This document shows positions 249 through 43,061 of a DNA stretch of 64,000 bases, one piece after another. The position numbers and the translations under genes are program-made. The DNA is taken from contig OZ038465.1 in assembly GCA_964036295.1 (NCBI GenBank), positions 6,889,667 through 6,953,666 on the forward strand, given 5' to 3'. Within the stretch, counting starts at the first letter, position 1. Each line of letters begins with the position of its first letter. This stretch comes from Plumapathes pennacea. Its lineage: Eukaryota > Cnidaria > Anthozoa > Antipatharia > Myriopathidae. Under the pieces are notes generated by a model, which was not told the origin of the DNA, made no database searches, and was given only the letters and a program-made list of their open reading frames with translations.

Positions 249-3200
249 CTAGCACCATTTCCTCCAACTCAGCATCTTCCCCTGTCAGCTGCCGAGTATA
301 AGACGGGTGGTGTCTCGGTGACAGGGTGTGTGTCTGTCCCGGTTGTTGTGACTGACCAATGATGCTGTTAATCATGTCGCCCACTTGTCCCAATGCTCGC
401 CCCACCTCCCCCAGCATCTGACTGTCTGACCGACAGACACGAGCTATTTTCTCGGCCAGAGCTCCGTCCGTCCGTCCACACAGACCGTTGGCATCGCACA
501 GAGCGCACAACAAGTCATGGATGACACTCTTGACCGAATCACACAGCGGAGGGGACTTTACTTGTTTGCTGGGCAGCGCTGCTTCGACGAGCTGAGCGTG
601 ATTCGGAGGAACACTGGTCTGGTTCCCCTCTATAACAGTGCGTCTCAACTGAGGCGTGATCGAGTAGCGCAAAGTACTCCTTGCTACGTCTGTGAAGAGC
701 TGCGAATTTCTGAACGCGGCTGGACCGAGCGAGCGCAGCATGTAGTTGATCTCCTTGGAACCGGTGGAATTGGGCCCGACACCGCTCGCCGCACTGCTAA
801 CTCCATTCATCGCTGCTGACCGTACGACTTTCTCCATGGTATATTTTAAGCTGTCCTCATCTTCCAAGACGTGCCGCAGGACCAGGTTCGCTAGCGAGTG
901 AAAGCCAGGGAAGACGGACTTCTGAGTGAGTCTGAGCAGCGCCGCGGGACCGCCATGTTCCACAAACTGTACAGCATACTTGTGATCTTGAGTGATGCGA
1001 AGGCACAGCTTCAGGACGGCATGCAAGGCTTGCGGTGGAACAGGAATGCAGATGAACGTAGCACAGCACCTGCAAAAAAACCAGATATTCAAAGTCCTGT
1101 TGCTCAAAGCTTGATTAAGTTAAGGATTAACCGACCAAAGTGACTGCTTTCTAAACGTCGTACACGGGAATAGGACGTCTTTGCTTTTGTACCGAATACA
1201 AGAGAGAGAGAAAAGCTGTTTTCCTCATTCAAAATTGGGCCTTGTATCCTCGTTGTAAGCCTGCCCCTTGCGTGGTAGTGTAGAAAAAGAGCACACTGAT
1301 TATGGAAGATGTTATTCATTGGTATGGTGGCATGTTGCGCTGGTGGTTGTGGTTGGTGGCATGTTGGGCTGGTGGTTGCTTGACGAACAGTAAAACGAGA
1401 CGCACCTGATGATAAGCGACTTCTGCCTCTTGTTGAGTTTCTGGATTACCGGCTCTTCACTGTTTGAGCTGTTCTTGTTTTGGCTCGACGTGCCCGCCTT
1501 GCTCTGCTCGGCGCTGCCAGTAGAAGACTTCGCTGCCTCTTTTGACTGAGCAGACCCAGCCGCTCCCTCCGTCGTGCTTTTTTTCGAAGCCTCCAAAACT
1601 GTTTCCAGCATGATAGGACGCCTGTTGCCTGAATCCTCATTGACCTGAAGATGATAAAAGCACAAAATTGGCAAGAACGTGCAAGTGTAAGAACGTGCTT
1701 TCGTGAGGTGCGTCGAAACGACTACACAAGACTATTTTTCGCTCTTGCACGTACGTAGATAATAATAATAATACAGTAGAAACTATTAACTGCAGCCTCA
1801 TACCGTCCTAGTGTCAACACTTCTTTCAGACAGTGATACCAATAAAGTTTAATCATTGCCTGCAGCAAACTGTATTATCCCAGAAAAGATCACAATCGAG
1901 ATTGTCATTCAAAAAAAAAAAAAAAAAAAAAAAAAGGCACACCAGTTTCACCACTTACCTGCACCATAGTGGTAAAATTGACATTGTATCTTCTCCTTCC
2001 CGCCATGAACCTATTAAAGCAAAAATATGGAGGTTAACATTCGGCACCCAAAACAAGAGTCCCATGACGGGGAAAAAAAAAAGAGACAAAAGTACGCAGC
2101 AGTTTGGCCAGTGGGTCTCCTGACCCAAAATCTGAGCTGCTTACCTCACTTTCGTCTCGCCGTTTCGATACGCATTGTCAATGGAGGTGTTATTGTTCAC
2201 GTTGTAGCTGTACCAGCGACCACTACGGTCATCAAACCATTTCCAGCTGCGTGTTGTGCACTGTTAATAAATAGGAAGGTATTACACTATCCAGTGAACA
2301 CTCAACTCGTATCGCTCACCTCTGACCTCATAAAGATTCAACACAAGGTTTTAGGTTGCACTTCCACTTGCGTTCACCTTATTGCGATAACTTTTAAAAA
2401 CTTGCACCGACTTTGACTGACCCCCAATCTGCATGCAAGGCGATGTAGATTTTTCACCGTTTCCTCGACAGAATAAACAAGTTAACTTCTAGGTGTAGCA
2501 GGTTTCGGTTTTATTGCTTTCGCTTCTGCTCGTTCAAAGGTTTTTCGTCCGGCCCTGGAAATTGGGTGTGTAAACACTTTGGCTCAGTTCTGGTTGGTGG
2601 TAAGAGGCATTCTAACGGTGCCCACGATTTGCTTTTTTGATTACCCGGGTTTCTGGTTTTATGAAACTCAATCGAAAATGGAAAAATATAACTGCAAATT
2701 ACGTTGACAATAAACATGATGGATTAATAGCAGCACAACAGGATACCTGGTATCTCGTCCTGACATTATGACAATTTATATAAAATGTGCATGTACCAGC
2801 TTTTTCCCGGGACAAATCAACAGAAATAAAACTGAAACATCCTAGGATGCTGTAAGCTGGAGAAATCTGATGTTGCATTGGTAATAAAGACCAGACACAC
2901 AACAAAATCTGTGGACTGGGGGTTCCCGCAATGCATGACCTTTTGCTGCTAAAATTATGTTTAATCCTTCCACTCCCAAGCTCAAAATACAGATTCTCCC
3001 AACCTTTTAGGAAGAAAATGTATGAGTGATGTAGTGAGAATTGATAGCTGAATCAGCTGAGTACACTATCAAGTGGCAAATTCTCCATACTGTATTACAT
3101 AATATCTGGTTAGAGATTGAAAGGGAATATAGAACTTGATCACTACCTTGTCATGAGCTCGTTTTTTCTCCGACGACAGCGCAACTTTCTCGTACAGATC

Positions 3201-6200
3201 CAGGAGGAGGATAAGTGGAGAAAACCACCTGCGAAACAAATTACTTGGATTCACTCACAGTGCACAATTTACACGCCTCGCTACGGGAAACACACAAATC
3301 AAGTCTTCAAGGGACCCGACGCCTTCTCAACCAATGTACTGCAATGCTCTTGTTGACATCTTGAAATGTGTAAAACAGTCAAGGCTGAATTTGGTTCTCA
3401 AACACGAAAAACGTAGTAAATCGGTGACAAAATATCTACTGTACAGCAGTCTAAAAGTCTTCCAAATGAGTCGCAAGGAAATGGGTTTCTTTCGACTTTC
3501 GGGAACCCTGAAATGGCAGGTCAAGAATTTCGGCGCGAAAAGGACTGTGGTTTGTAGGGCCTGTTAATGACGAGTACAAGTAAGGTTATCGCATACCGTT
3601 ACCACTTCTAAAAGTGACAACATATTGAACAATAGATGCTTTTAAAGTGTACCAGCTTAACCCAGGATAACCCGACAAAGACAGGTGCGGGAATCCAACG
3701 ATGCGTGGAAGCTGGTTGCGTTTGATGTTGCATTGGTTTTACGACCAGACATACAATCAGACATGTGTGCTGGAGATACCTACAATGCGTCTTTGCAAGA
3801 TTTCCGTCTGCGTGTGTTTGATCTTCAGATTGACTGCATGACTAGTCCCTCTTACCCTTCATCGCCACACCCTACCAACACTCCGCTGATTTTGGACTTC
3901 GGTAGTATAGTATTATATTTTTTAGTTTTACCTGGGGATAGAAGGGTCACTTGAAGAGAGCTTTAGCTGACACATGATGTCCAGTAGTTGCAGCAACTGA
4001 TTCAGAATACCAAACGTCTGTACGGCACTGCCACACTGGACCTTCATTTCCTGCAAGGTATTGTGAACACAAACACGGAGTTTCAAGACACACAACTGTC
4101 TTCTTATAGATTGAAACTAGCACAACTGACTTCAATTGTGAGTAACATTAAGCAATTACTTGAATTTGCTTTGCAACTGGTGGACCCAGTTACTCAAAGC
4201 AGGATTAGATTAATCCTGGACTAAACCCAATCATTTCTGTCATCTTTAGGTAAAGAAACGCAGAGGTTTATCTTAGAACTTAGCTTCCTGGATACGATTT
4301 GAACTAAAATAAGCTTTACATTGGTGTTTGAACAAAACCTTTTAGTTCATTGGCCACAAGGTCGAGAGAAAGAATTTGGTTGAACCTGGATTAGATTTGA
4401 ACAACCGGGTCCAGTATTTTGTAGACGAACGTGCATGCAAGCGATAGATATTTCAAAACGCAGACGTAGATGTTAAAACAGAATACCCAGGCAGCTCTAA
4501 AAGTTCAATAATTATGCAGAGTTCTGCGTGAAATGCGGTGTATGGCTATTCGTTTCCTAGAAATTAGGGAGCTTAAGCAAACTAGGACGGCGACGGCAAC
4601 GCGAGGAACCGTGAAAAAATGGTCTCCATATTCCTTATGTCTTTGTAACTTTGCCTATTTTTAAGTTGCTCAAATTTGTTCCGTTTTTGCCAAAGTTCTA
4701 TTGCTTAGTCATCATCCATTACTAAGAAGAACGGATGTCGTGATTTCTCAAAATGTCGTCCACGTCCTGACAACAACCTAAAAAAGAAGCATTTGAAGTC
4801 GCACGCGAGAGCACGACGACCCCGAGATCATGTCAATTTCACATATTCACGTGCGCCTTTTGTCTTCTGCAATGAGTTTTATTGTTTCACCGACGTTGCC
4901 GTCGTCCTCTCCCGTCCTGGTGCTTAAGCTCTCTATTACGAGCTGATCGAGTGCACACCTCAAACAGCAGACAAGTGAGGTGGAGGAGAGAAGACAGTCT
5001 TGGAGCCTCCGCTGCAGAGCACATCTGTGATGCACACTCTTCCAACGATTTGCCATCATTACTGTCTGGGCTGCAAACCTTCATTACAGTCTGGATGTCC
5101 TCCGAAATCTTAAAAAGACCAGATACGAAATTAGAACAAATAAACATCGTCTTGACAAACGGCAAATCACCAAGCGATGACAACAACGAACAGATCAACA
5201 TGAACAACTCAAAACAACAGCACTGATCATAAATCATTATCAGCAACATTATCATCACCACAGCCATGATCAGTATGATGTCCCCCCCTCCCTCCCCCTC
5301 CCCCTCCCCCACCAGGATCATGATCATGATCACGATCAACATCGTTAACAAAACCATCATCAACGTCATCATCGAAATCATCATCATCATCATCACCGTA
5401 GTCATCATTACCATCACACACGACAATGATAGCCTTATCTAATTCCTGCATTACAGCAACAACAGCAGATTACACTCAAACTACAAATGCCTCGCACAAC
5501 CTACCTGTCTGAAGAGGTCAGCCAACATCTTGTCTCTCCATTCCTCTCCATTGCGTTTGGACGCCACAGCCAGCAGCTCACACACGTGGCATACAGTCTC
5601 CGGCACGTCCGTCAATAAAGTCAGACAACTGTTGAGCATCTCACTCGTGAACGTCGTCAGGACATTTCTGTCCAGAGGAACGGAGTCTTCGGCGCTTTTG
5701 TCATCTTTGGAAGATTCGCTTGGGAGCTAAAAACCGTAACAAATCGATGACAAAATAGGTAAATAACACCCTAAGGTCAAATGACTTTAATCTTTCAAAC
5801 GAGTTGGACGGAAATGGGTTGCTAATTCATCTTTCGAGTTTTGGGGGCCCCAAATATGGAAGATCCAAAGATTTCGGCGCACAAAGGACTGTACTTGGGA
5901 GGGCATCTTAAAGGCGAGTACCAGGAAGGTTATCTCATACCATTACCACTTCTAAAAGTGACAGCATATTGAACAATAAATGCTTTAAAAGTGTACCAGC
6001 TTAACCCAGGATAACCCGACAAAAGACAAATGCGGGAATCCAACGATGCGTGGAAGCTGGTTGCGTTTGATGTTGCATTGGTTTTACGACCAGACATACA
6101 ATCAGATATGTGTGCTGGAGATACCTACAATGCGTCTTTGCAAGCTGTTTAGGAATAATTACCGGATCCGTCACTTCTTAGCTCGGTAGAAAATTGGAAG

Positions 6201-9200
6201 AAGTCTATCAATATTTCCTTTGTCAAGGCAATTGTAAGGAAAAGAGCTACAAAACCTGATTGCTATGTTCTTACACAGAAGTAGCTATAGCGTTTCCTCG
6301 CGCTGATAATTGCTTTCCTCTTCCAAGTAAAACCGGACGCAATATTGGTTGAAAGTTTCTTACAGCCTCCGTAATTGATGGTGTAACTACTATGGTTTTG
6401 GTTTTCGACAGTCATCCGAAAGCGGCTCTGAAAGCGGTGAAAAACTGTTTTTCTCATGTAAAGTAGCTTACTTTTTGGCTTTGTTTCGACTCCAGCTTTC
6501 CTTGTTCTTGAGGCTCTTGTGAACCTGTGGAGGCAGTTATGTTCTGTCCGAGTGAAAGAGCTATGGCTCTCATCATCTGATCCTCCTCCGTCATGTCCAA
6601 ACCAATATTCTGCGACAACAAATTGCAAACAATGTTGAATGCAGTGCAGTGCAATACAGTATCATAACATGCAACACAAATTACAGTAAGCATAACATTA
6701 TCACACTGCAGAGAGTATGGTGCTTGCTGACTTTGATCAGTGATTAATCCCCAAAGCTAATAAGACTCAACCTGAGAAACTGTTGAACTGTCAAGTGAAA
6801 AACCTAAAAGTGTGACCACTCAGCTCAAAAGCTCTCAGTGAGTACATTCTAACAGCAGTGTTCACTCTAACCACTGAACCGTGCAGTGAAACCTATAAGG
6901 TGTGTGTCAAATGCCCAAGACGATGAATAGATTAACTGAATACAAATAAGAATGTACAGTATGTAAGTCAAAAAGGAAAGAAGTACGGGCCGAGCGCCAT
7001 CTGTTGTATGAACTGGACTCAAAGAGTGTTATGTAGTTGGAATTGCTAAACGTACAGATACTCTAATGACATGTACCAGCTTTTTCCCGGGACAAATCAA
7101 CAGAAAACAAACTGAAACATCCTAGGATGCTGTAAGCTGGCCAAGTTATGATGTTGCATTGGTATTAAAGACCAGACACACAATAAAATCTGTGGGCTGG
7201 GGGTTCCCGCAATGCACTACCACTTGTACAGACTTGTTGAAGACTAACTACAGACCGACTCTCAGAAACATGGAGACCTCACAAAAACAAAACAATAACC
7301 ATAACCATAACCAAACAAACAAACAAACAAAAAAAGAAAAACAACAGTACAATTTGTAGAGTATGATTCAATTCTATGAGGATCTTCGACAGGTAACGGT
7401 TACTTTGGACAAATGCAAAACCTAAATGCGATTTCCTCACGCAAGCACTGCTGATTGGTCTATACGAAGTAAAACAAATCGCAAATAACTTTGACTCCTG
7501 GTTGGTTGGACGTTTTTCTTACAGCCTGTGTGATTGGTGCGGTAATTACACTGGTTATGGTTTTCGATAGTCATCCAAAAACGTACCCTGGCAGGGCGTG
7601 CAGCTGCCGGTGGATGTGATAGGATGTACTCCATGGCCTGTTCCAGATTGCTCGTGCTCGACAGGGCTTCTCTGGCCAGCTCACCGTCGAAACCCATATC
7701 AATCAGCTGTGAAATAAAACAAGGTACAGCCTGTCAGTTGTCTGCTTGAAGTACCTTATCTCTACTGGTCACAGAAGCAAAGCAATTCGTGCTCCTTTGA
7801 ATTTCCATTCAAAAGTGCTTGCTAATGATCGCTCTGCTGTCGGTATGTGCTTGGTTACGCGGTCGATATATGATCGACATGCTCTCGGTGCGTGGTCGGC
7901 ATGTGGTCGTTACGTAGTTGGTGATGTGGTCGGTATGTTCTCGGCATGTTCTCACTACGTGTTCAATACATGCTCGGTATGAGATCGGCATGTGCTCGGA
8001 AAATGTAGTCGGTGCGTGGTTTTAGTAGGCGATACGTGATCGATATGTGCTCGGTAAACATGGTCGGTATGTACTTGGCATGTGTTCGGTACGTGGTAGT
8101 TACGGCTCGCTAACGTGGTCGGTATGTGTTCAGTAAAGGAATAATGCGCACTTCACCTGCTGTCGTTGTTGTTCATTGCTTTCTGACAAAGCCGCTGGTG
8201 GGTTGGTCGAGGTTCTCGACGTCGACGCCGAAGGCGAGGCGCTGCTGGTAGCTGCTGCCTCCTTGTTCTCAGCGCCCTTGAGTTTCTCCTGCACGGTACT
8301 CTCGCCTTTGATGATGTGACAGATGATAGACAGCACCAGCTCAGCTATGTGTGCACCGTATCGCTTTGGCAGTTTGCGACCCCAAAGTAACATGACTGCA
8401 CGGAAAGCTCTCTGTGATGGAAACAAGAAGGTTTAGCCGACCTCACACACAGCAACGTATGAGCTGCAGTCACGGTGTACGAGCGACCACACGTTGTCTT
8501 CTGAGACTGCGTTTACGCGGATACGTTTTCATTTCCCGTTTGCGGCACGAAAAAGATCAAATTCGGCAATAAAAACGCATCGATTCGAAAACGCAGCGGC
8601 AAAAGTGGATCGTTTTTAAAACGCTTCGGTTTCTGTTTTCGTGTAAACAGAAAACACGGGGTGACAACACGCCCGCGTACACGCAACCTAAGTTACGAAA
8701 GGGGACCGCTGTACACAGACTGTCCGGACCGTCGCTGTCCGGCTTCTCAAGGTCACTCAAACAAGATGACTCAGCCATTCGTACTGAGCTGAATACACAT
8801 ACCTTCTGAGAAACGCTAAGAAATTCTACAGGTTTGAAAGGCACAAATCCTGTTGCATTAGACTGGCTTGGAAGAGTGTGGGAAGACTCCGTTAACGACT
8901 TGCAGTTCACGAGTCTGTTGGCGAGCATTAACCATGCGTCCAGCATCTCCTCCGTGCCATCTGTGAAACACAATATGGAATCAGGAACAGGCACCGCGGT
9001 AATACGTTTACCGACCGTCTGATCACCTAATTTTTGACTCAACAGTCATTGCACAAAATTGTGGATTCAAGCGCAGATTTTGAACTTCAGTGTAACGCTC
9101 GGAAAACCTCAGAACTTTAGTGCCAAGAAACTCAATACTAGGACTCGATTCTCAACTTTAAATTAGTTCAATGTAATTTCTGACATTAGTTGTGCAAAAG

Positions 9201-12200
9201 AAAATTGAGGTTTGCTGTGTAAGGCTCGAGGGTTTTCACTGCAGCCTCATACCGTCCTAGTGTCAACACTGACTTCAGAAAATTGATACCAATAAAAGTT
9301 TAATCACTGGCTGCAGATGAAAACCCGGTCTAACGAGACTAAGATAGTTGCGTGAACAGTTTAAACCTTGTAGCTCAAACTGTATGTGATTTCAGACATT
9401 CTTCATAATTACAAACTGATAAAGTGCTTGAAAGTATGACTCACCAGGTAAACTGGAGTGCTCGATTCCCTCGTTTGATGGAACCGTACCATTCTGGCTC
9501 AACACCAACTCAAACAGTCTGCAGTAAACATATGAACATTAGGATGGATTTTGGCTGGTACAATCATGGTCAAAATTGTTGGGTCGATAACAAATTACTC
9601 CCCCCCCCCCTCCACACCTCCCACGGTGCATTGTTGGATGGTTGAGTATTGTTCAGCCTATGCTACATAGGGAGCAACCACTGAATGCGGTGGGGGGTGG
9701 GGGGGGGACTTCAAATGATCACCATAGCGATCCGTTTGTACGTGTTGGTATTCTGTACAGACGACTCTTGACCATGACCGTCGTAAATGACAGCTCGACT
9801 CTCATAGCTGGTAATCAAGAAAAAAAAAATGAAAGAGAAGTTTGAAGGGAACAGCGCGTACTCACCCAAAGAAACTCTCGTGCGCTTTGCAGAAAACAAA
9901 CTGTTGCAGCATCAGATGATAGGGAAACTTCCTGTCGTCATACAGCAAGCGAGAGACAAAGCTCACAGAGCACATGTAGAAATGCAACCTAAAAAGAAAA
10001 AGAAGAAAAAAGGCCCGTTGTCAAGACCTTTTCTGTGGCAATGAAAAGCAGTCGCTTCCCATTACATGTAAAATCAGCTGCAAAGATACTCTCATGACAT
10101 GTACCAGCTTTTTCCCGGGACAAATCAACAGAAAACAAACTGAAACATCCTAGGATGCTGTAAGCTGGTTAAGTCTGATGTTGCATTGGTAATAAAGACC
10201 AGACACACAATAAAATCTGTGGGCTGGGGGTTCCCGCAATGCACAGCCATTTGCGACACTTGTTGGAGAGTAACTACAGACCGGGTGGAGGCGTTAAAAA
10301 AAAAAAACAATGGGAATTACTCTTATTATCATTAACGTCCAGTGTCGGGCGTAAGTGCGGGCCCAGGAGATTTAATGTTTTGATTGGCAGACAGTAAATG
10401 GTTAAACGGCTGAGGCATGTAACTTAAAATGGTACAGTGGAAGCCCGTAAATAGGGCCACCATCGGGACATAAAAATCTGGCCGTATTAACGGGGTTTTA
10501 AAATAAGAAAATGACGGGGCGTTTGTTCCACGGGACAAAAAATACTGGCCGTAATAACGGGGTGGCCGTAAGGCGGGGTTCCACTGTAAAACGGTTACGG
10601 CCTCGGAGAAAAGAATGGTTCTTAGGACTATTTCAAAGGTCGAACTTTCCGTGCATCAACCTCAATGCAGACAGTCAAAAAGACGACGTAATTTTAAATA
10701 TAACGAGTTTGGTGCATAAAAATGTTTGGACTGCTTTTTAGTTGGCTCTTTGTCGCACCTCAGTCTTTGCAGCGGCACCTGTGGTGGTCCTTTCCATGTT
10801 AGCATGCTGTTTAACAGTCCACACAGCTGCTCTGTCACAAGTCTGGCCGGTAAAGGTGGCAGGCTCGGATTGGCCGCGGCATGCGGTGCACGACGCTGTC
10901 TCTGCGCTGTACTGATGCTCAGCTTCACTAACAGTCCAAAGAACTCTGACAGGGACCTGCCAAGGTTTGAAGCCGTGTGCAACAGCTGCTTAATCAGGCT
11001 GACTTGGCCTGGTTTAAGAGGCAACTTGGACGACGAGGTCTCTTCCTTTGCTGGCGGTGGAGCTGTCGAGTTTATGTCTGATGTGGTATCTATTTTCAAA
11101 GAAAAATGACCAGTTTCAGGTTTGGCATGCAGTGAAATACAGTTCATGCTTACACATTGTGTGTCGTAGCATCTCTCTTCAAACACCACCATCAGCCACG
11201 GAGATAAATGCACAGTATGAGTGAACTGAAGACGACAGAAGTGATGTTGCAAGTGCAGTACCTATTTATGAAATACTCTGACAGTACGCGTGCTCCGATT
11301 AGTTGAAAACAAAATGCAAAATCAGAAAGTACAGCACAAACATTACACGTGTGCAAATATGCATTATAGACCAAATAGGATCCAGATCTACAGTATTTAA
11401 TGTCTGCAACAAGGTTTTACAGACAGATTGAATTTCGACTCACCTGAAATGTCCTCTTGTGAGCCGAAGAAAGACTTGAGCAAGTCCAGATCGTCTTTGG
11501 CAAGCTGCCTTTCCTCGTCTGAAGCATCTGGCTGCCGCAGACTCTCCAGCACGATCGTCTCCCACACAAGAGAGATGTACAACTCACTGAGCTGCTGGAG
11601 CACAGAGATCCCCAACTCCGACCCCCAGTGACTGATACACAGGCTACGGATGTCACTCTGAAATCAACCAAGAATTGCTGTTACTAAAAGTATGAGTGGG
11701 CGATGACCTTGCCAAAACCTGACTTCTTTCTCCTGTAAATGGGATTATTCATGTCTCACCTGGCTTGCTTTGCACGTATGCAAGAACATACTGATGTAGG
11801 CGTGCACGGCAGAAATGCTGTGAAGAAGAGGAGAGTGCTGTGGTGAAGCTGGAGCCTGAGAGGGTCGCGGAGAGGAGGCCACCTCGTGAAGTAACAGAGA
11901 CACAGCAGAGTCGTCAGACCGCTGATACAGCGGCTTTAATCTGTCTAGTACTTCTTTTAGCTGCAGTTGACCCTGCCTGATCACTTGTGGTTCGTGGGAC
12001 AACAGCTGCAGAGAATACAGGAATAGCATCGTCATTTAAAAAGATGCCAGAAACAAGGTTTGGGAATTAAAGAAGCCATACACTGCAGAACAGTCATCAC
12101 AGGAATATCAATGTTACAGATGGACTATGTTTTTTTTTTTTTTTCCCAGCTTCTGGTTGGTTTGTAGCATTTATTCGTGCGTTAGGTTTGGAATATAACG

Positions 12201-15200: not shown

Positions 15201-18200
15201 TCTTAACCAACCTGAAGTTAACGTAATTTGCGTTTGGTTTTACTTTGCAGAAAAGACCAATCAGCCTTGTGAGACAATGCTATTCCCACTTGATTGCTTC
15301 CATGACAAAAGATCACAATCAGCTTTTGTTTTGTTCCTGATTGGCCAAGAATGCAGCCAAACATCTGATCCAAAAGCATGACAAATGCAAAATCAAGGTA
15401 AATCAAGCAACTACCTCTTTGACTACAAGAGCCTTGAGTAAGACTCCAGTCAGACCACCATCTTGCAGAGAGGACAGAAGTGATGGTTCATGGAACACAT
15501 ACACTGTGACAACATCAATAGCTGTAGAACACAAAGGATTCAGATTAAAGTCAGATAAACAGCTTATCCTTCTTTTTGGAGACATGTACAAATGTTTGAG
15601 GTTCTACAGTACATAGTAAGACTATAAATATCCACATAAAGTACAGGTAGGTACATTGTACATGTATTACAGTGCTCGACATTAAGGTTTTAGGTTGGTT
15701 GCCCTTCAGACTGTAGATTGACTTCAAGCAATAGAAAGTTTCATAATTTCTAGTTGCCCCGGGCAAGCGGGCAACCGTTAATGTCGAGCGCTGTATTAGA
15801 GAAAGAACACATGCAGAATAGTACACCTAGGCAAACTACAGTTCATTATAACAGTGGAATATGGAAGTGCCTACCAGCCATGAATAAAACAGGGCCATAG
15901 TACTCCACATTGCTGATGATGTACTTGAGTGAGGTGGGGAGGGAACTGTCCATTACTGTACAAAAAAAAACAAAAAAAAAACAAAATGCAATCAGGAAAT
16001 TGTGAAACAAAAAATACAAGTGTGTAATCATGTGTGTACTATGTGAAAAACATACAGTTATCAAAACTGTAAAAATTAGTAAGAATGTATGGCAAATCAC
16101 AGTACAGTAATTGGGAAGAGTGTGAGAAACTGGCTAGGCAGTAGGATGTGAATAGAAATGGTACATGGAGACAACAGAAGATTCAAGATAACATACTATT
16201 TCTGATACTGTCAGAGAAGGAGGGATCAGGGATGGATTTCTTCAAGAAACTCAGAACAGCCTTGATGAGAGCAGCCCTCTGTGGCAAGCATCTGGTCTTG
16301 CTGACAGGTCCTGGTGACGCTGGATCCAATGACGATGGCCCTGGTTGGACCTGCTCAGATTCCACCTCCATTCTGCAGTCTCCGTTTAAAGATGGCTGCT
16401 CCGTTTCCATGGGAACCTCAGTTGGAGAGTTGTTTCCTGAAGACTGCCCTCCTGGTTCACTGCTTGTTTCCATGGCACCCACACCGCTTGGGTTCTGCTT
16501 GTCAGTTGGGCTGTTCAGTGATAGGATACCTCCATGGTATGGCTGGCATTTTTTCACTTCCCACTGTTAAGAACAAGTTCAAATTAATTACTTGTTTGCA
16601 TGTTTCACTTCAACAAGAGAAATGTCACTCAGCTCTCTTCAGTACTTGATAAAACGAATGCCTTTCATGTTTTGTTGTTGTTGTTGTTATTGTTGTTGTT
16701 GCTGTTTCACATGATAATCCTAGCAGATGCTAACTCTCCTTACAAAATCTAAAGATTTAAATGTTGAACAAAACGTACACATAATTTTCTAAACAATAGA
16801 AAATAGTTCACCAGAACATTAAAAGTAAGTATGAAAACAAACCCTTGACCATTCCTTGCAAAACATGGGGATGTAAAGCCCATGACATTGAGATGCAGTT
16901 CAGTTACCCACCTCCAGTCTTTTAACAATGCAGTTCAGACCATTGTGGTTCTGGTAGCCTGACACATCCATATTGGCTATCCACTCCATTATTCTGATGG
17001 CTCTTGTCACAAACTAAAGACAGAGAAGAAGATCCGTTAAAGATCATAATACAGTGTTATGTTTATACTGTATACTATGTACATGTAAAGTATGATCAAA
17101 GTTCTTGTACAGTAACAAATGCCACCATCATTGTAATGACTTCACACATTTGCGTGTGTGTATGTTTGCTTGATAAGAAGAACCTTGAATCATGTTGTAT
17201 TTACTGTATTCAGTTATTTACTGTATTAATGAGAAAAGAGCAGGAACAAGGCAGTGAGTTGGATGTCAACTACAATAAATATTATTGCTTCACTGAACAT
17301 GTACACTAACCGTGAGATGTTCATTGCCTCCTGGAAACTCTACAACTTGAAGGAGTGATTCCATCAAACCACAAGAAACTAATGCCTCAGCACCTAAAAC
17401 ATGTACAGAAAATGATTAACCCTTTCATCTTCAATTTCAAAATACAGATTCTCCCAACCTTTTAAGAAAAAAACTGTATGAGTGATGTAGTGAGAATTGA
17501 TAGTTTAATCAGCTATCATCTGAGCAAGGTATCAAAAGCCAAGTTCTCCTTACTGTATGGTATATTTGTGCTACCTAAACTGAAGGAGAAAGTTGAACTT
17601 GATCACTCTTGGGAGCGAAAGAGTTAAAACAAGTTCTGGTGATTTTCTTTTACACAAGTGCAGAACTAGAAAGCTCAGATTGAAACATGTCAGACTTACC
17701 CACTTCATAGTAAGCAAGGTGGTACAGAAATGAAAACAAGCCTGTAGCAAAGGCTAAAGGAAAAGGTTCCATTGGTGGTTCTATAAGGAGAGATAACAAG
17801 ATCAGGGCTGATTGTAGTTCTTATGGCACACCTGACAGAGACCCTCAAAAGACAGCCCATACATGTATACTACAACCTTACCAGTCATGGCTTGAATGCA
17901 CTTTCTTGTTAACGTTGGTAAGAAGCCATGATAGGAGGCCAAGCCAGTACTTTCTATGATGGTGTTCACCCTGAAGAAGCAATGTACTTTTAATAGTACT
18001 CAGAATTTTACTATAATTTTATACAATATGTCCCCATTTAATGGTGTTAAACTGCTATAATTTTACACTGACACTCAAATAAAGTTATTATTATTATTAT
18101 ACAACTTTTCATGGTGGTAGATTTCACACAGTAATGATTGGTTGTGAACCGATTCCACTGCAGATTACATGTTGAATAAGAACTTTATTCAAATACAAGT

Positions 18201-37716: not shown

Positions 37717-37760
37717 ATACAGATTGCCGCCTAAGCCGTCCGTGTTGACATTTGTTGAGA

Positions 37761-40700
37761 ATGGCAGACAAAGAGCCGTCTGAACAGCCTGTAAACAAAG
37801 CCACTAGCGACGCATGCCGGTCGAAGCGCAAGGTCGCTAAATCTGCGCTCACAAGGAACGCAAACCGAGCCAGAGAGATTATGGAACAGACCGGCAGCCG
37901 ATTCAAATTACGACAGTTCCGTGATGGAATCGTCGAAGCCCTAAACAAAGCCCGAGCCTTGACGGAGGCGCTCGAAAACACCGACCCTGAGTCCATCGAG
38001 AGCGATGGAGAGTGGTTCTTGGAGGTTGACGAAAACGCTCGTGAAGTTCTTGGAGAAATCGAGGACTACCTCGAGACTCAAGGACAAAAGCCCGAATGTT
38101 CTGTGTCAAGCGTGGGTGAAAGCGAGCAACAGCAGCCGAACCAGAATCACTCCGAACACGTTCATGATGACGTCGAGTCTCTGCCCGTTCCTGACCAGAG
38201 TGGCGTGACCAGTTCAATGCATAGCCTTGCCCGAATACAAGTGCCGAGATTTGAAGGAAGCCCCGACAAATGGCCGTATTTTTGGGGGATCTTCAGTGCC
38301 CTCGTTCACCAGAACTCGAAGCTACCAAGTGCCATAAAGTTCGCACACTTGAACAATGCGCTTGGCGACGGTGTGAAAGAAGCAATTTCCTGCCTCACGG
38401 GCGAGCCAGGAGATTACGAAAAGGCCGTCGATCTGTTGAACGACCGCTTTGGCGACCCGCGTGATGTCGTCGACGCGCATCTTCGGCGCATTATAGCTTG
38501 GCCATCAGTCAAAGAACGCGACCGGAAGGAATTTCAGCGATTCGCTGATGCACTCCAAGCAGCAGTATTTGCTTTGGATAAGCCGGCATACGAACACGAA
38601 CTGCGGAGTTACCCACTCTGCACGCAGCTAGTGCGTAAATTGCCCCCCAGTGAGAAGGACGAGTGGGTGAGGCAAGTAGAACAAAAGCTTGTCAACGAAG
38701 ATGTGCGCGGGTTTGCACGGTGGGCGCAAACCAGGTCTAAGACGTTGCGTAGGCGTGACCGTTACGACGAGGCACCAACTCAGACCACCGTACAGCCAAA
38801 ACAGCAGAGCCACGAGCTAGTGAAGAAAACCCCGCCCAAGGTTTCGACTATGCTTGCATCCACTGAAACCCGTCCACTGTCCGGACCGAGGCCTTCCCAG
38901 TGCGCTCTTTGTGACGGCAACCACCAAGAATCAGAGTGTGAAGTTCTGTTAGCCGCGGATGCAAATCAACGTTGGGAGCTAGTCAAGTTGAAGGCCGTGT
39001 GTTTTGGATGCCTAAAGCAAGGCCATCAACGTCGAGCGTGCAAGAAATCCAGCCGATGTGGTGTAAACTCCTGCGTGAAGGGACACCATCGCCTTCTCCA
39101 TTCTGTCGAACCACAGGGTACATCTGTTGAACCACAGGGTATAGTCCGCTGTGGTAAGGCAGCTACACACGCCCCGATTGCCACCACCAAGGTTGCTCTG
39201 AAAACTATCTGCGCACCCTTTATCAGTGCCTCTGGCCAGACAGTTTGGGGCACTGTGCTGCTAGACTCAGGAAGCGAGACAACTCTGGTCCGAACGGCTT
39301 TCGCCAGACAACTTGGTCTCCGAGGGCCAAGCAAGAATCTAGTCGTTGATGCCGTCGGGGGGGTTCGGTCTACCGTCAAGTCCGAACGTGTGTGTCTGCC
39401 CTTTACCCAGCCGATGGAGAAGGTGTTTGCGTGGACCATGAAAACTATCTGTGCGCCCACGGAAACCATAAACTGGCCCGAGATCAAGCAGCACTACGCG
39501 CATCTACGAGACGTGCCCCTACAGCCGGTGAATTCCGCAGCGGTCGATATACTCCTTGGCTCTGACGCCGCTGGACTGATGTCGCCCTTGGAAGTCAGAC
39601 GTGGGAGGATCTCAGAGCCATGCGCCGAACTGACTCCGCTGGGCTGGGTTGTATCGGGACCCATTGTGTCAGGTGGGACGTATACAAACCGCATTCTGCG
39701 AGCCAACGTGTCAGCAGCCGAGGAAGAAACCGGCCAACTATTGCGCAATTTCTGGGAAGTGGACTCATTTGGTGTCCAGAGTGAGACTTCTTCTACGTAC
39801 ACCCGCGATGAACAAGCCGCCATGACCCTTCTCACTGAAACGTGCCGTCAAGTCGACTCTGGATATGAAATGGCGCTCCTGTGGAAACCGGATAGACCTC
39901 CACTACCGAACAACCATCCTATGGCATTTAAACGTTTGCAGTCAGTTGAGCGGCGCCTGCAGCGAGATCCCAAGCTTGCCGAGGGATACTGCAAGGCGAT
40001 CAATGCCTACGTGAAGAAGGGGTTTGCACGCAAGTTGCCCGCTGATGAAAGTGCCGCACAGGGGGAACAGTGGCTGCTGCCTCATCACCCAGTGGTGTCA
40101 CCCCACAAGCCACTCCCAAGGGTCGTGTTTGACTCAGCTGCGCAACACCAGGGTGTCTGCTTGAACGACTGCCTGCAGACAGGCCCTAGTTTGCATAACG
40201 ATTTACCGGGGATCCTGATGCGCTTCCGCGAGAATCCAGTCGCCCTGGCGGGGGACGTGTCAGACATGTTCTGTCACGTACGGCTGCGCCCAGAAGATTG
40301 CAAATACCATCGGTACTTGTGGCGTGACATGGAACTAGAGCGACCACCTGACGTGTACGAGATGAACTGCCTGGTATTTGGTGACAGGGCCTCGCCTTGC
40401 CAAGCAAACTTTGCAGTCATACGTACAGTCGAAGACAACAAGGAGCAATGGCCCCAAGCTGCTGCAGCAGTGAGGCGTGACATTTTTGTGGACGACCTGT
40501 ATACAACATGTGCAGATGTACCATCGGCTATTAGCCTTCGCCAAGACGTCACAGCACTAATGGCATGTGGAGGTTTTCCAATGCGTAAGTGGCTGTCTTC
40601 ATCGCGTGAAGTTCTGCAATCGATTCCTGAAGCGGAGAGAGCTGTTCCCGCTGAATGCCTGGAACTGGGGGACCTACCCTCCGGCCGTGCCTTGGGCATC

Positions 40701-43061
40701 AGATGGGATGCCGAGTCAGACACGCTAGGGTTTGCCCTTCCACATTTGGATCGCCCGAAGGCTTCAATCACGAAGCGTGGCGTTCTCCGCCGCCTGTCAG
40801 GCCTCTACGACCCTCTTGGCTGGGCCAGCCCCTTTGTCATCCGAGCCAAAGTCATACTGCAACGCACCTGGGCCCGTGGGCTCGCCTGGGATGAGCCCCT
40901 GCCTCCAGACATGACGATCCAGTGGTCTCAGTGGGAGAAGGAGGTAGCTGCCCTACGATCGTTTACAGTGCCACGGTACTACTACCCTGAAGTTACCGCA
41001 GGATGGACCAAGGAGCTGATTGTGTTCTGTGATGCATCTGAGGACGCCTGCGCAGCAGTCGCATACATGCGTGCAGTGTCAAGCAGTGCTGAAGTCGTCT
41101 GCCACTTGGTCCTGGCCAAAACCCGCCTGATGCCACTAAAGACCCTCTCGATACCACGAGGGGAGCTGATGGCCTGCCAGCTAGCGACACGCCTTGCAAA
41201 GACCACGTGTGACCAGCTGGGACTCAGCATGAGTACTGTCACCTACCTGTCCGATTCAACTACAGCACTTTGGTGGATTCGTGGTGAACCTCGGAACTTC
41301 CGCCCGTTTGTAGCTAACCGAGCTGCAGAAATCACCTCAGTGAGTGACCCCTCCCAGTGGCATCATGTGCGGACAGAGCTCAACGTGGCCGACATTGCGA
41401 CTCGCGGAGTCCCGAGCAGTGAAGTGCACTCGAAATCGTGGTGGATCCGCGGACCCGACTTCATCTGGACAGAACGGACTGAATGGCCATTGGATGATGT
41501 ACCGACCTCAAACTGTCCCACTGCCGAGGTAGAGCTCAAGAAGAAGGTGCTCCAAGTTGGTGCTCCAGCGGAAAGCCCTGTTGATCCTGCAGCCTACTCC
41601 AGCTGGACCCGACTGCTGCGTGTAACTGCTTGGCTCCTGCGTTTTAAAGACAACCTGCTCCACCGTCATGATAGAAAGTCCGGTCCACTGACAGTGGATG
41701 AATTGAAGAAGGCTGAGGTAGTCTGGATTCGCCGAGCCCAACAAGACCGCTTCCACGCAGAAATCAAAGCCTTGTCCGAGGGACGTCCTGTCTCCCAAAG
41801 CAGTCGCCTCGCAAGCCTCGACCCACAGCTTGTGGAGGGAGTCCTTTGTGTTGGTGGCCGAATCGGAAAAGCAGAGATCCCGTGGTCAGCCAGGCACCCG
41901 ATCATCTTGGACCATGGACATGACATAACGCGATTAATTGTCCTCCACTTTCACCGCAGCCTGATTCATGCGGGGGTTGAGCATGTCTTTAACCATGTGC
42001 GTGAAAGGTTCTGGATTCTGCGAGGACGTGCAGAAGTGAAGCACTGTGCCACAAAGTGTCCCTTGTGCCACCGCCGTCGGGTACGACCCATGACGCAGCA
42101 GATGAGTGGCTTGCCATCGGTGCGACTGCGAGATGTCAGCTCGCCTTTCCACCACTCTGGCTTGGATTACGCGGGACCATTCACGGTGCGTATCGGCCGT
42201 AACAGAGTGGAGAAGCGGTACATCTGTCTGTTGACATGTTTGCATGTCCGAGCGGTGCATCTCGAAGTAGCCCACAGTCTGGATACGGACTCTTGCATCA
42301 TGGCTCTGCGCCGTTTTCAAGCCCGTCGCGGAAAACCCGCCCAGATCTGGAGTGACAACGGTCGCAACTTTGTTGGTGCAGAGCGGGAACTCCGAGAGTC
42401 GCTGCAAGCCCTCGAGCAAGAACGGATTGCTGAAGACCTCACAGGCGCTGGAGTTCAGTGGCACTTCAATCCACCGCAAGCGCCCTGGTTTGGTGGAGCC
42501 TGGGAAGCCTTGGTGAAATCCACCAAACGCGCTATGAGGGTGATTCTTGGGGAAACTCTCACTGTCGAGGAAGTCTTCGCCACAGTAATCGCCGAGGTGG
42601 AGGCTCTCCTCAACTCCCGTCCACTGGTCTACGGCGGAAGCAGTAGTTCACCAACAGACGTCAGTGCGCTGACCCCGAACCACTTCCTCCATGGACGGGC
42701 GGGCGTTAACCTTGCTCCAGGAGAATTTGTTGAGAGGGACATGTCTCTCCGCCGCAGATGGCGCCATAGTCAGTTCCTTGCTGATCAGTTTTGGCAACGC
42801 TGGAGGCGCGAGTACGTTCCACAGCTGGTGCAGCGAAGCAAGTGGCGCACTCTGCAGCGAAACCTCCGCCGAGGAGACCTAGTCCTTCTGGTAGAAGACA
42901 ACTTGCCCCGAGGGAAGTGGCCTCTCGGACGCGTGGTGACCCCCATTGCCAGTGCCGATGGTCTTATCCGTTCTGCCGAGGTTGCCACAAAGTCTGGTAC
43001 CTACGTGCGGCCAATCAGAAAACTGGCCCTTCTGGAAGCCCACAACGAAGAAGATGCCTGA
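37761..43061 (+). CDS. BEL/Pao gag-pol polyprotein, intact
   Basis: A single frame of 1,766 codons encodes the capsid-like and enzymatic proteins. I chose the ATG at 37761 (MADKEPSEQ). Domains in order: a DUF1759-type gag region (about residues 150-310, with VPRFEGSPDKWPYFWGIF); CCHC zinc knuckles (CFGCLKQGHQRRAC, about residue 413); an aspartic protease (LLDSGSETTLV, about 500); reverse transcriptase with the FVDD catalytic motif (about 908); RNase H (FCDASEDACAAVAY, about 1088); an integrase HHCC zinc motif (about 1395-1435); then the integrase core with Asp (GLDYAGPF), Asp (IWSDNGRNF) and Glu (PWFGGAWEAL), and a C-terminal DUF5641-like region. No stop or frameshift interrupts it, which is uncommon for an old genomic copy. 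Confidence 0.96.
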   Translation: MADKEPSEQPVNKATSDACRSKRKVAKSALTRNANRAREIMEQTGSRFKLRQFRDGIVEALNKARALTEALENTDPESIESDGEWFLEVDENAREVLGEIEDYLETQGQKPECSVSSVGESEQQQPNQNHSEHVHDDVESLPVPDQSGVTSSMHSLARIQVPRFEGSPDKWPYFWGIFSALVHQNSKLPSAIKFAHLNNALGDGVKEAISCLTGEPGDYEKAVDLLNDRFGDPRDVVDAHLRRIIAWPSVKERDRKEFQRFADALQAAVFALDKPAYEHELRSYPLCTQLVRKLPPSEKDEWVRQVEQKLVNEDVRGFARWAQTRSKTLRRRDRYDEAPTQTTVQPKQQSHELVKKTPPKVSTMLASTETRPLSGPRPSQCALCDGNHQESECEVLLAADANQRWELVKLKAVCFGCLKQGHQRRACKKSSRCGVNSCVKGHHRLLHSVEPQGTSVEPQGIVRCGKAATHAPIATTKVALKTICAPFISASGQTVWGTVLLDSGSETTLVRTAFARQLGLRGPSKNLVVDAVGGVRSTVKSERVCLPFTQPMEKVFAWTMKTICAPTETINWPEIKQHYAHLRDVPLQPVNSAAVDILLGSDAAGLMSPLEVRRGRISEPCAELTPLGWVVSGPIVSGGTYTNRILRANVSAAEEETGQLLRNFWEVDSFGVQSETSSTYTRDEQAAMTLLTETCRQVDSGYEMALLWKPDRPPLPNNHPMAFKRLQSVERRLQRDPKLAEGYCKAINAYVKKGFARKLPADESAAQGEQWLLPHHPVVSPHKPLPRVVFDSAAQHQGVCLNDCLQTGPSLHNDLPGILMRFRENPVALAGDVSDMFCHVRLRPEDCKYHRYLWRDMELERPPDVYEMNCLVFGDRASPCQANFAVIRTVEDNKEQWPQAAAAVRRDIFVDDLYTTCADVPSAISLRQDVTALMACGGFPMRKWLSSSREVLQSIPEAERAVPAECLELGDLPSGRALGIRWDAESDTLGFALPHLDRPKASITKRGVLRRLSGLYDPLGWASPFVIRAKVILQRTWARGLAWDEPLPPDMTIQWSQWEKEVAALRSFTVPRYYYPEVTAGWTKELIVFCDASEDACAAVAYMRAVSSSAEVVCHLVLAKTRLMPLKTLSIPRGELMACQLATRLAKTTCDQLGLSMSTVTYLSDSTTALWWIRGEPRNFRPFVANRAAEITSVSDPSQWHHVRTELNVADIATRGVPSSEVHSKSWWIRGPDFIWTERTEWPLDDVPTSNCPTAEVELKKKVLQVGAPAESPVDPAAYSSWTRLLRVTAWLLRFKDNLLHRHDRKSGPLTVDELKKAEVVWIRRAQQDRFHAEIKALSEGRPVSQSSRLASLDPQLVEGVLCVGGRIGKAEIPWSARHPIILDHGHDITRLIVLHFHRSLIHAGVEHVFNHVRERFWILRGRAEVKHCATKCPLCHRRRVRPMTQQMSGLPSVRLRDVSSPFHHSGLDYAGPFTVRIGRNRVEKRYICLLTCLHVRAVHLEVAHSLDTDSCIMALRRFQARRGKPAQIWSDNGRNFVGAERELRESLQALEQERIAEDLTGAGVQWHFNPPQAPWFGGAWEALVKSTKRAMRVILGETLTVEEVFATVIAEVEALLNSRPLVYGGSSSSPTDVSALTPNHFLHGRAGVNLAPGEFVERDMSLRRRWRHSQFLADQFWQRWRREYVPQLVQRSKWRTLQRNLRRGDLVLLVEDNLPRGKWPLGRVVTPIASADGLIRSAEVATKSGTYVRPIRKLALLEAHNEEDA

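What the first reader, a model, noticed from the sequence alone, without database searches (positions are those of the whole stretch)
2789..10245. HUWE1 introns host five H/ACA snoRNA-like units in two diverged families
Units at 2789-2937, 7069-7217 and 10097-10245 (family A) and 3645-3791 and 5989-6136 (family B) sit one per intron, all on the host strand. Both families keep the same skeleton (CATTG...CAATG hairpin, ACATCA hinge fitting ANANNA, ACCAGCTT...AAGCTGGT hairpin, ACA three bases from the end) while most loop sequence differs. Read on the opposite strand the H and ACA boxes are absent, so the architecture favours the host strand. Conservation of stems and boxes against diverged loops is the mark of selected RNA.
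Basis: partly seen in the sequence, partly recalled or inferred. Interest (0 to 1): 0.85.

Follow-up and report, generated by a model that had tools for sequence, protein, structure and literature searches.

The report
Guide RNAs inside HUWE1 gene introns
Five small RNA genes sit one per intron inside the animal gene HUWE1; two of them look built to steer a chemical change at two neighbouring spots of the ribosome's RNA, which makes them a new case of a known kind of gene, while the target of the other three is still unknown.

Summary
All five units lie at the stated coordinates on the HUWE1 strand, each in its own intron, with two hairpins, hinge ACATCA and ACA 3 nt from the end. They are not a SINE or MITE: the core motif occurs 5 times in the 290-Mb genome, all here; one diverged copy sits in a RICTOR intron. 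Identity falls outside the units (B1/B2 144/148 inside, 186/249 in the one long flank). In three A/B pairs compared, stems and boxes match at 51-52 of 53 columns but the pockets only at 10/19 and 11/19.

New here: the best rRNA matches of both family B pockets are 18S uridines equivalent to human 1056 and 1081, 25 nt apart, both pseudouridines in human. None of 1500 shuffled pairs matched this jointly, but neither hit stands out alone. Family A has conserved pockets but no convincing target. No Rfam family matches the units (101 for B2 and A2). Two copies of a possible C/D guide lie in other HUWE1 introns. Expression is untested. Verdict: probable H/ACA snoRNA genes, new members of a known kind.

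The parts
2789..2937 (-). H/ACA unit A1 (family A), in HUWE1 intron about 2261-3146
3645..3791 (-). H/ACA unit B1 (family B), in HUWE1 intron about 3228-3933
5989..6136 (-). H/ACA unit B2 (family B), in HUWE1 intron about 5727-6471
7069..7217 (-). H/ACA unit A2 (family A), in HUWE1 intron about 6610-7589
10097..10245 (-). H/ACA unit A3 (family A), in HUWE1 intron about 9988-10760
6119..6125 (-). B2 hairpin 1, 5' guide arm GGUAUCU (same in B1 at 3774-3780)
   Evidence: pairs 18S AGAUACC; positions read by eye
6086..6089 (-). B2 hairpin 1, 3' guide arm UCGU (same in B1 at 3741-3744)
   Evidence: pairs 18S ACGA; positions by eye
6068..6073 (-). B2 H box ACATCA (B1 at 3723-3728)
   Evidence: positions by eye
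6042..6049 (-). B2 hairpin 2, 5' guide arm GCAUCGUU (B1 at 3697-3704)
   Evidence: pairs 18S AACGAUGC; positions by eye
6006..6008 (-). B2 hairpin 2, 3' guide arm UGG (3 bp only)
   Evidence: pairs 18S CCA; positions by eye
5992..5994 (-). B2 ACA box (B1 at 3648-3650)
   Evidence: positions by eye
9243..9312 (-). possible C/D-box guide copy 2, in HUWE1 intron about 8962-9445
   Evidence: inconclusive
1794..1860 (-). possible C/D-box guide copy 1, between the HUWE1 exon ending at 1959 and the next HUWE1-like reading frame (by eye)
   Evidence: inconclusive

Best explanation
Each unit is an intron-encoded box H/ACA snoRNA gene: it is transcribed with HUWE1, freed from the spliced intron, trimmed and bound by the H/ACA proteins. 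Family B (two copies) is a two-pocket guide: hairpin 1 presents the 18S uridine in GACGA-U-C-AGAUACC and hairpin 2 the uridine in ACCA-U-A-AACGAUGC, 25 nt further on, for pseudouridylation; these are the equivalents of human 18S psi1056 and psi1081. Family A (three copies) is a paralogue with the same stems and boxes but rewritten pockets, so it should guide other, still unidentified sites. Copies spread between HUWE1 introns, and once to RICTOR, by duplication. Shown: sequence, fold, boxes, introns, copy number, conservation pattern, pocket complementarity. Inferred: transcription, processing, protein binding, the modification itself and the direction of the A/B change.
For: Structure and boxes 5 of 5; one unit per HUWE1 intron in the sense direction; low copy number; B1/B2 identity 144/148 inside against 186/249 in the low-coordinate flank, A2/A3 144/149 against 97/170 and 54/80; stems and boxes 51-52 of 53 between families, pockets 37/37, 36/37 and 36/36 within the three same-family pairs compared. 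B targets: top-ranked place for both pockets (27 and 28 points), distance from pocket to box 16 and 14 nt (by eye), six of six SSU sequences covering the first site score 24.5-27, joint event 0 of 1500 shuffled pairs, and both uridines are pseudouridine in human 18S, 93% and 94% (PMC6182160 Table 1; numbering check 11 of 11 sites at a single offset).
Against: No expression data. Fold energies of family A are ordinary (z -0.5 to -1.0), and the A2 and A3 folds pair part of a box. Each B pocket score alone is within the shuffled range (p about 0.06 and 0.155; freer register: 27 against null median 27.0 and 28 against 28.5), and family A scores as high without a believable site (28.5; 31.5 and 28.5). 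Hairpin 2 has only 3 bp on its 3' arm. The 18S stretch with both sites is recalled human sequence; this species' own 18S middle was not found, and three other eukaryotes' 18S listed for the second site score lower (24, 22, 20.5). Few pairs covary: 5 of 34, all in the apical part of hairpin 2.
Confidence: 0.8

Rival explanations
1. Family B is a working H/ACA guide, but family A is a set of orphan or idle copies kept alike by recent duplication or gene conversion.
For: No target above shuffles for A in the rRNA and snRNA set; A copies are 92-97% alike inside the unit (137/150, 139/149, 144/149); A2 and A3 share short flanks too.
Against: A pockets are 37/37 and 36/37 identical in the two pairs compared and ACATCA and ACA are intact in 3 of 3, while flanks have diverged far more.
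Confidence: 0.3
2. The units are genuine H/ACA snoRNAs, but the family B target given here is wrong and the match is chance.
For: Each pocket score alone is within the shuffled range, and the second site has 3 bp on one arm.
Against: Both top hits fall 25 nt apart on uridines that are pseudouridine in human; the joint event was 0 of 1500. The RICTOR copy keeps the guide arms except one base of the short hairpin 2 3' arm.
Confidence: 0.12
3. The units are a mobile repeat (SINE, MITE or snoRNA-derived retroposon) without function.
For: There are several copies, and a further diverged copy and a 38-nt piece lie in RICTOR introns.
Against: Only 5 exact core motifs and 6 places by BLAST in 290 Mb; all intronic and in the sense direction; no poly-A tail seen by eye; identity falls outside the unit.
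Confidence: 0.05

Closest known systems
Box H/ACA snoRNAs of animals (intron-encoded pseudouridylation guides)
   Same: Two hairpins, ANANNA hinge, ACA 3 nt from the end, about 148 nt, sense in introns, pockets 14-17 nt from the boxes (spacing by eye).
   Different: No sequence match to any of 4227 Rfam families; expression and protein binding untested.
The human guide or guides of 18S psi1056 and psi1081
   Same: Same two uridines predicted.
   Different: Which human snoRNA does this was not established here (searches gave no answer), so whether one RNA serves both in human is not known to me from a call.
Plant C/D snoRNA snoR20a (Rfam RF01193), for the companion element at 9243-9312
   Same: Same guide stretch CUAGGACGGU just before the D box (alignment).
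   Different: 27.5 bits against a cut-off of 42, E 1.8, and an equally weak hit to ceN53 (24.4 bits, cut-off 50, E 0.6) at the same place; ATGA in place of CTGA. Shared guide sequence may reflect the same rRNA site, not descent.

Membership tests
Box H/ACA snoRNA | two hairpins joined by a single-stranded hinge | tested here: met
   5 of 5 minimum-energy folds; A2 and A3 folds also pair part of a box; z-scores -0.5 to -2.9
Box H/ACA snoRNA | H box ANANNA in the hinge | tested here: met
   ACATCA in 5 of 5; the RICTOR copy has ACATCG, which does not fit
Box H/ACA snoRNA | ACA 3 nt from the 3' end | tested here: met
Box H/ACA snoRNA | pocket that pairs on both sides of a target uridine, 14-16 nt from the box | tested here: inconclusive
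   family B: 11 bp each at two 18S uridines, 16 and 14 nt from the boxes, jointly 0 of 1500 shuffles but weak singly; family A: no convincing target, spacing 17 and 15 nt
Box H/ACA snoRNA | in an intron of a host gene, sense strand, one per intron | tested here: met
   5 of 5
Box H/ACA snoRNA | expressed as a stable nucleolar RNA bound by dyskerin, NHP2, NOP10 and GAR1 | not testable with these tools
   no RNA or protein data available
SINE or MITE | high copy number across the genome | tested here: not met
   5 exact core motifs, 6 BLAST places (lower bounds)
Box C/D snoRNA (companion at 1794-1860 and 9243-9312) | C box RUGAUGA, D box CUGA, terminal stem, 10 or more nt antisense before D | tested here: inconclusive
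   TGATTA and ATGA depart from consensus; CTGCAG terminal stem present; 13 nt antisense to L031 18S, 8 nt to four others

The most novel reading that the evidence does not exclude
A two-pocket guide for 18S psi1056 and psi1081 was copied inside one host gene and both pockets were rewritten while stems and boxes stayed frozen, giving family A a lineage-specific target; HUWE1 here works as a small snoRNA operon in which the B units and a C/D pair all serve one 18S segment.
Probability: 0.3. Interest if true: 0.65.

Novelty: new member of a known kind. Interest (0 to 1): 0.45.

Why it matters
If true, one gene holds two sister guide families with an almost unchanged scaffold and two different pairs of pockets, so retargeting of a guide RNA can be studied directly. 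It also predicts two exact pseudouridines, and perhaps one ribose methylation between them, in the 18S rRNA of a non-model animal, each testable in one experiment. HUWE1 did not come up as a snoRNA host in the paper searches made here (2 papers listed; 15 of 72 listed; listings only, and most subscription papers are not held).

Tried and rejected
SINE/MITE reading: rejected on copy number. Known Rfam family: none on the units; the most permissive run covered B2 and A2 only and gave one hit, mir-33 on A2 at E 1.5, taken as a chance stem likeness. Family A targets: best places were one in L022 (28.5, p about 0.135; it lies outside the LSU match as placed), one at LSU position 1386-1387 of L019 (31.5 against a null median of 29.5), the equivalent of human 18S U1155, not a listed pseudouridine, and a 10-bp one-arm match in a 28S variable domain; none passes the 95% line of the shuffles. 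snRNAs gave nothing better. An intact 18S of this species was not found: only rRNA fragments. Relatives of the units in viral contigs: 0. 18S with the animal motif in viral and prokaryotic contig collections: 0; a general 18S motif gave 8 contaminant contigs, of which 5 SSU sequences were used (L030-L034) and L027, L028 and L029 SSU were not. Antisense 11-mers to rRNA occur dozens of times per strand in 28 kb, so the C/D match is not evidence by itself. Papers for the human guide of the two sites: no answer.

Full report
What is there. The window's minus strand carries HUWE1: 13 exon pieces, stitched by hand, match human HUWE1 residues 1024-1667 of chain 9plq_A (E 1.5e-161), and by eye the 12 gaps between them carry GT and AG signals. 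The five units of the finding lie one per intron in the gene's direction. Each is 147-149 nt, folds into two hairpins, has ACATCA in the hinge and ACA 3 nt from the end. Fold z-scores are ordinary for family A (-0.98, -0.52, -1.01) and better for family B (-2.08, -2.91), and the A2 and A3 folds also pair part of a box.

Copy number. BLAST of the own genome (290 Mb, 24 contigs) with A3 finds 5 places, all the five units. BLAST with B2 finds 5 places: B2, B1, A3, A2 and a new one on contig C5, 81% identical. The exact core pattern occurs 5 times, all here, with 0 for the reversed control. The tool warns that such counts are lower bounds. A covariance model of the five finds no further unit in the 64-kb window and finds the C5 copy at 86.5 bits. 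That copy (L055:4250-4393) lies downstream of sequence matching human RICTOR residues 299-413 (chain 9zbk_C, pieces from L055:1-4250) and upstream of a RICTOR exon matching 650-701, on the same strand. It keeps the B guide arms except one base of the short hairpin 2 3' arm, has one mismatch in stem 1 and ACATCG in the hinge, and its lowest-energy fold loses hairpin 1 (z +0.20), so it may be decaying. A 38-nt piece of hairpin 1 lies about 1.5 kb upstream of it (E 0.0002).

Selection. B1 and B2 also share flanking intron sequence: identity is 144/148 inside the unit, 186/249 columns in the low-coordinate flank, and 8/8 on the other side, where the alignment ends. A2 and A3: 144/149 inside, 97/170 and 54/80 outside. 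A1 and A3: 139/149 inside, 74/138 and 7/9 outside. In three A/B pairs compared (of six), stems and boxes match at 52, 52 and 51 of 53 columns, apical parts at 29, 25 and 21 of 46, pocket 1 at 10/19 and pocket 2 at 11/19. Within families the pockets match at 37/37 (A1/A3), 36/37 (A2/A3) and 36/36 (B1/B2). So the scaffold is frozen, and the pockets are kept within a family but differ between families. The consensus fold of six sequences has 34 pairs, 5 with double changes, all in the apical part of hairpin 2 where alignment is least certain; most stem pairs never vary and say nothing either way.

Target of family B. I scored every uridine of the available rRNA for pairing with each pocket (15 sequences: 7 rRNA fragments of this genome, 7 pieces from eukaryotic contaminant contigs, and a recalled 357-nt human 18S stretch). 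Hairpin 1 ranks GACGA-U-C-AGAUACC of 18S first; the 6 SSU sequences listed for it score 24.5-27. Hairpin 2 ranks ACCA-U-A-AACGAUGC first, at 28, in the recalled stretch; three contaminant SSU sequences listed there score 24, 22 and 20.5. Single-pocket p values were about 0.06 and 0.155 (200 shuffles). The sites are 25 nt apart. In 1500 paired shuffles the two scores were reached 22 and 52 times, best hits within 30 nt occurred 11 times, and all three together 0 times (on 5898 nt). Against this, with a freer pocket register (100 shuffles each) 27 equals the null median and 28 lies just under it. The human modification table (PMC6182160; passages and section 3 parts 1-3 of 5 read) lists psi1056 at 93% and psi1081 at 94%. 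The recalled stretch fits that table at one offset only among those tested, 11 of 11 sites, and puts the two predicted uridines at 1056 and 1081. The second site's sequence is also in published 18S primers (PMC11342540 and PMC4133247, passages read). I take the family B target as likely, not proven.

Family A. No target above the shuffles was found in the same rRNA set, in the own-genome U2 repeat, or in recalled U1, U4, U5 and U6. The set lacks an intact 18S and 28S of this species. A's best scores (28.5; 31.5 and 28.5) are no lower than B's, which shows how little a single score means. The pockets are conserved, so I think A is a working guide with an unknown target, with a fair chance of being idle.

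Companion. Two copies of a short element in two other HUWE1 introns (1794-1860 and 9243-9312) look like C/D guides: TGATTA near the 5' end, ATGA near the 3' end, a CTGCAG terminal stem and the same guide ACTAGGACGGT. Only these two copies were found in the genome. The guide is antisense for 13 nt to 18S AUACCGUCCUAGU of contaminant L031, and for 8 nt to the four other 18S sequences covering the site, a place between the two B sites. The boxes are not canonical, folding is unremarkable, and short antisense matches are common by chance, so this is a lead.

Known or new. The units meet the structural definition of box H/ACA snoRNAs and match no Rfam family (101 for B2 and A2). Searches of the held papers listed none that reports snoRNAs in HUWE1 and little on cnidarian H/ACA RNAs; only listings were seen and most subscription papers are not held. 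The kind is known; the members, the host and the frozen-scaffold, swapped-pocket pair appear new to me.

Noticed in passing
window 1794-1860 and 9243-9312, minus strand: Two copies of a possible C/D-box guide in HUWE1 introns, with an ATGA D box, guide ACTAGGACGGT and a CTGCAG terminal stem; may target the 18S stretch between the two B sites.
   Followed up: partly
L055:4250-4393 and L055:2753-2790 (own genome, contig C5): A diverged copy of the B unit, and a 38-nt piece of its hairpin 1, in RICTOR introns on the sense strand.
   Followed up: partly
window 7149-7222, minus strand: Hairpin 1 of A2 gives a weak mir-33 match (E 1.5), probably a chance likeness of the GUGCAUUG stem.
   Followed up: no
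own genome, contig C8, about 6836636-6889898: U2 snRNA genes repeat about every 1.37 kb; 40 places scored of 213 candidates, with a change of strand inside the array.
   Followed up: no
own genome, contigs C1, C2, C5, C7, C12: Scattered rRNA fragments but no intact rDNA unit found.
   Followed up: partly
L027-L034 (prokaryote genome collection): Eight contigs filed under bacteria carry eukaryotic rRNA, so they look like contamination.
   Followed up: partly
window 37749-43061, plus strand: A 1770-residue open frame that looks like a BEL/Pao-type retrotransposon polyprotein (by eye; not tested).
   Followed up: no
window 2957-3058 and 17412-17514: Two copies of a repeat, 82-85% alike, one just beside unit A1.
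   Followed up: no
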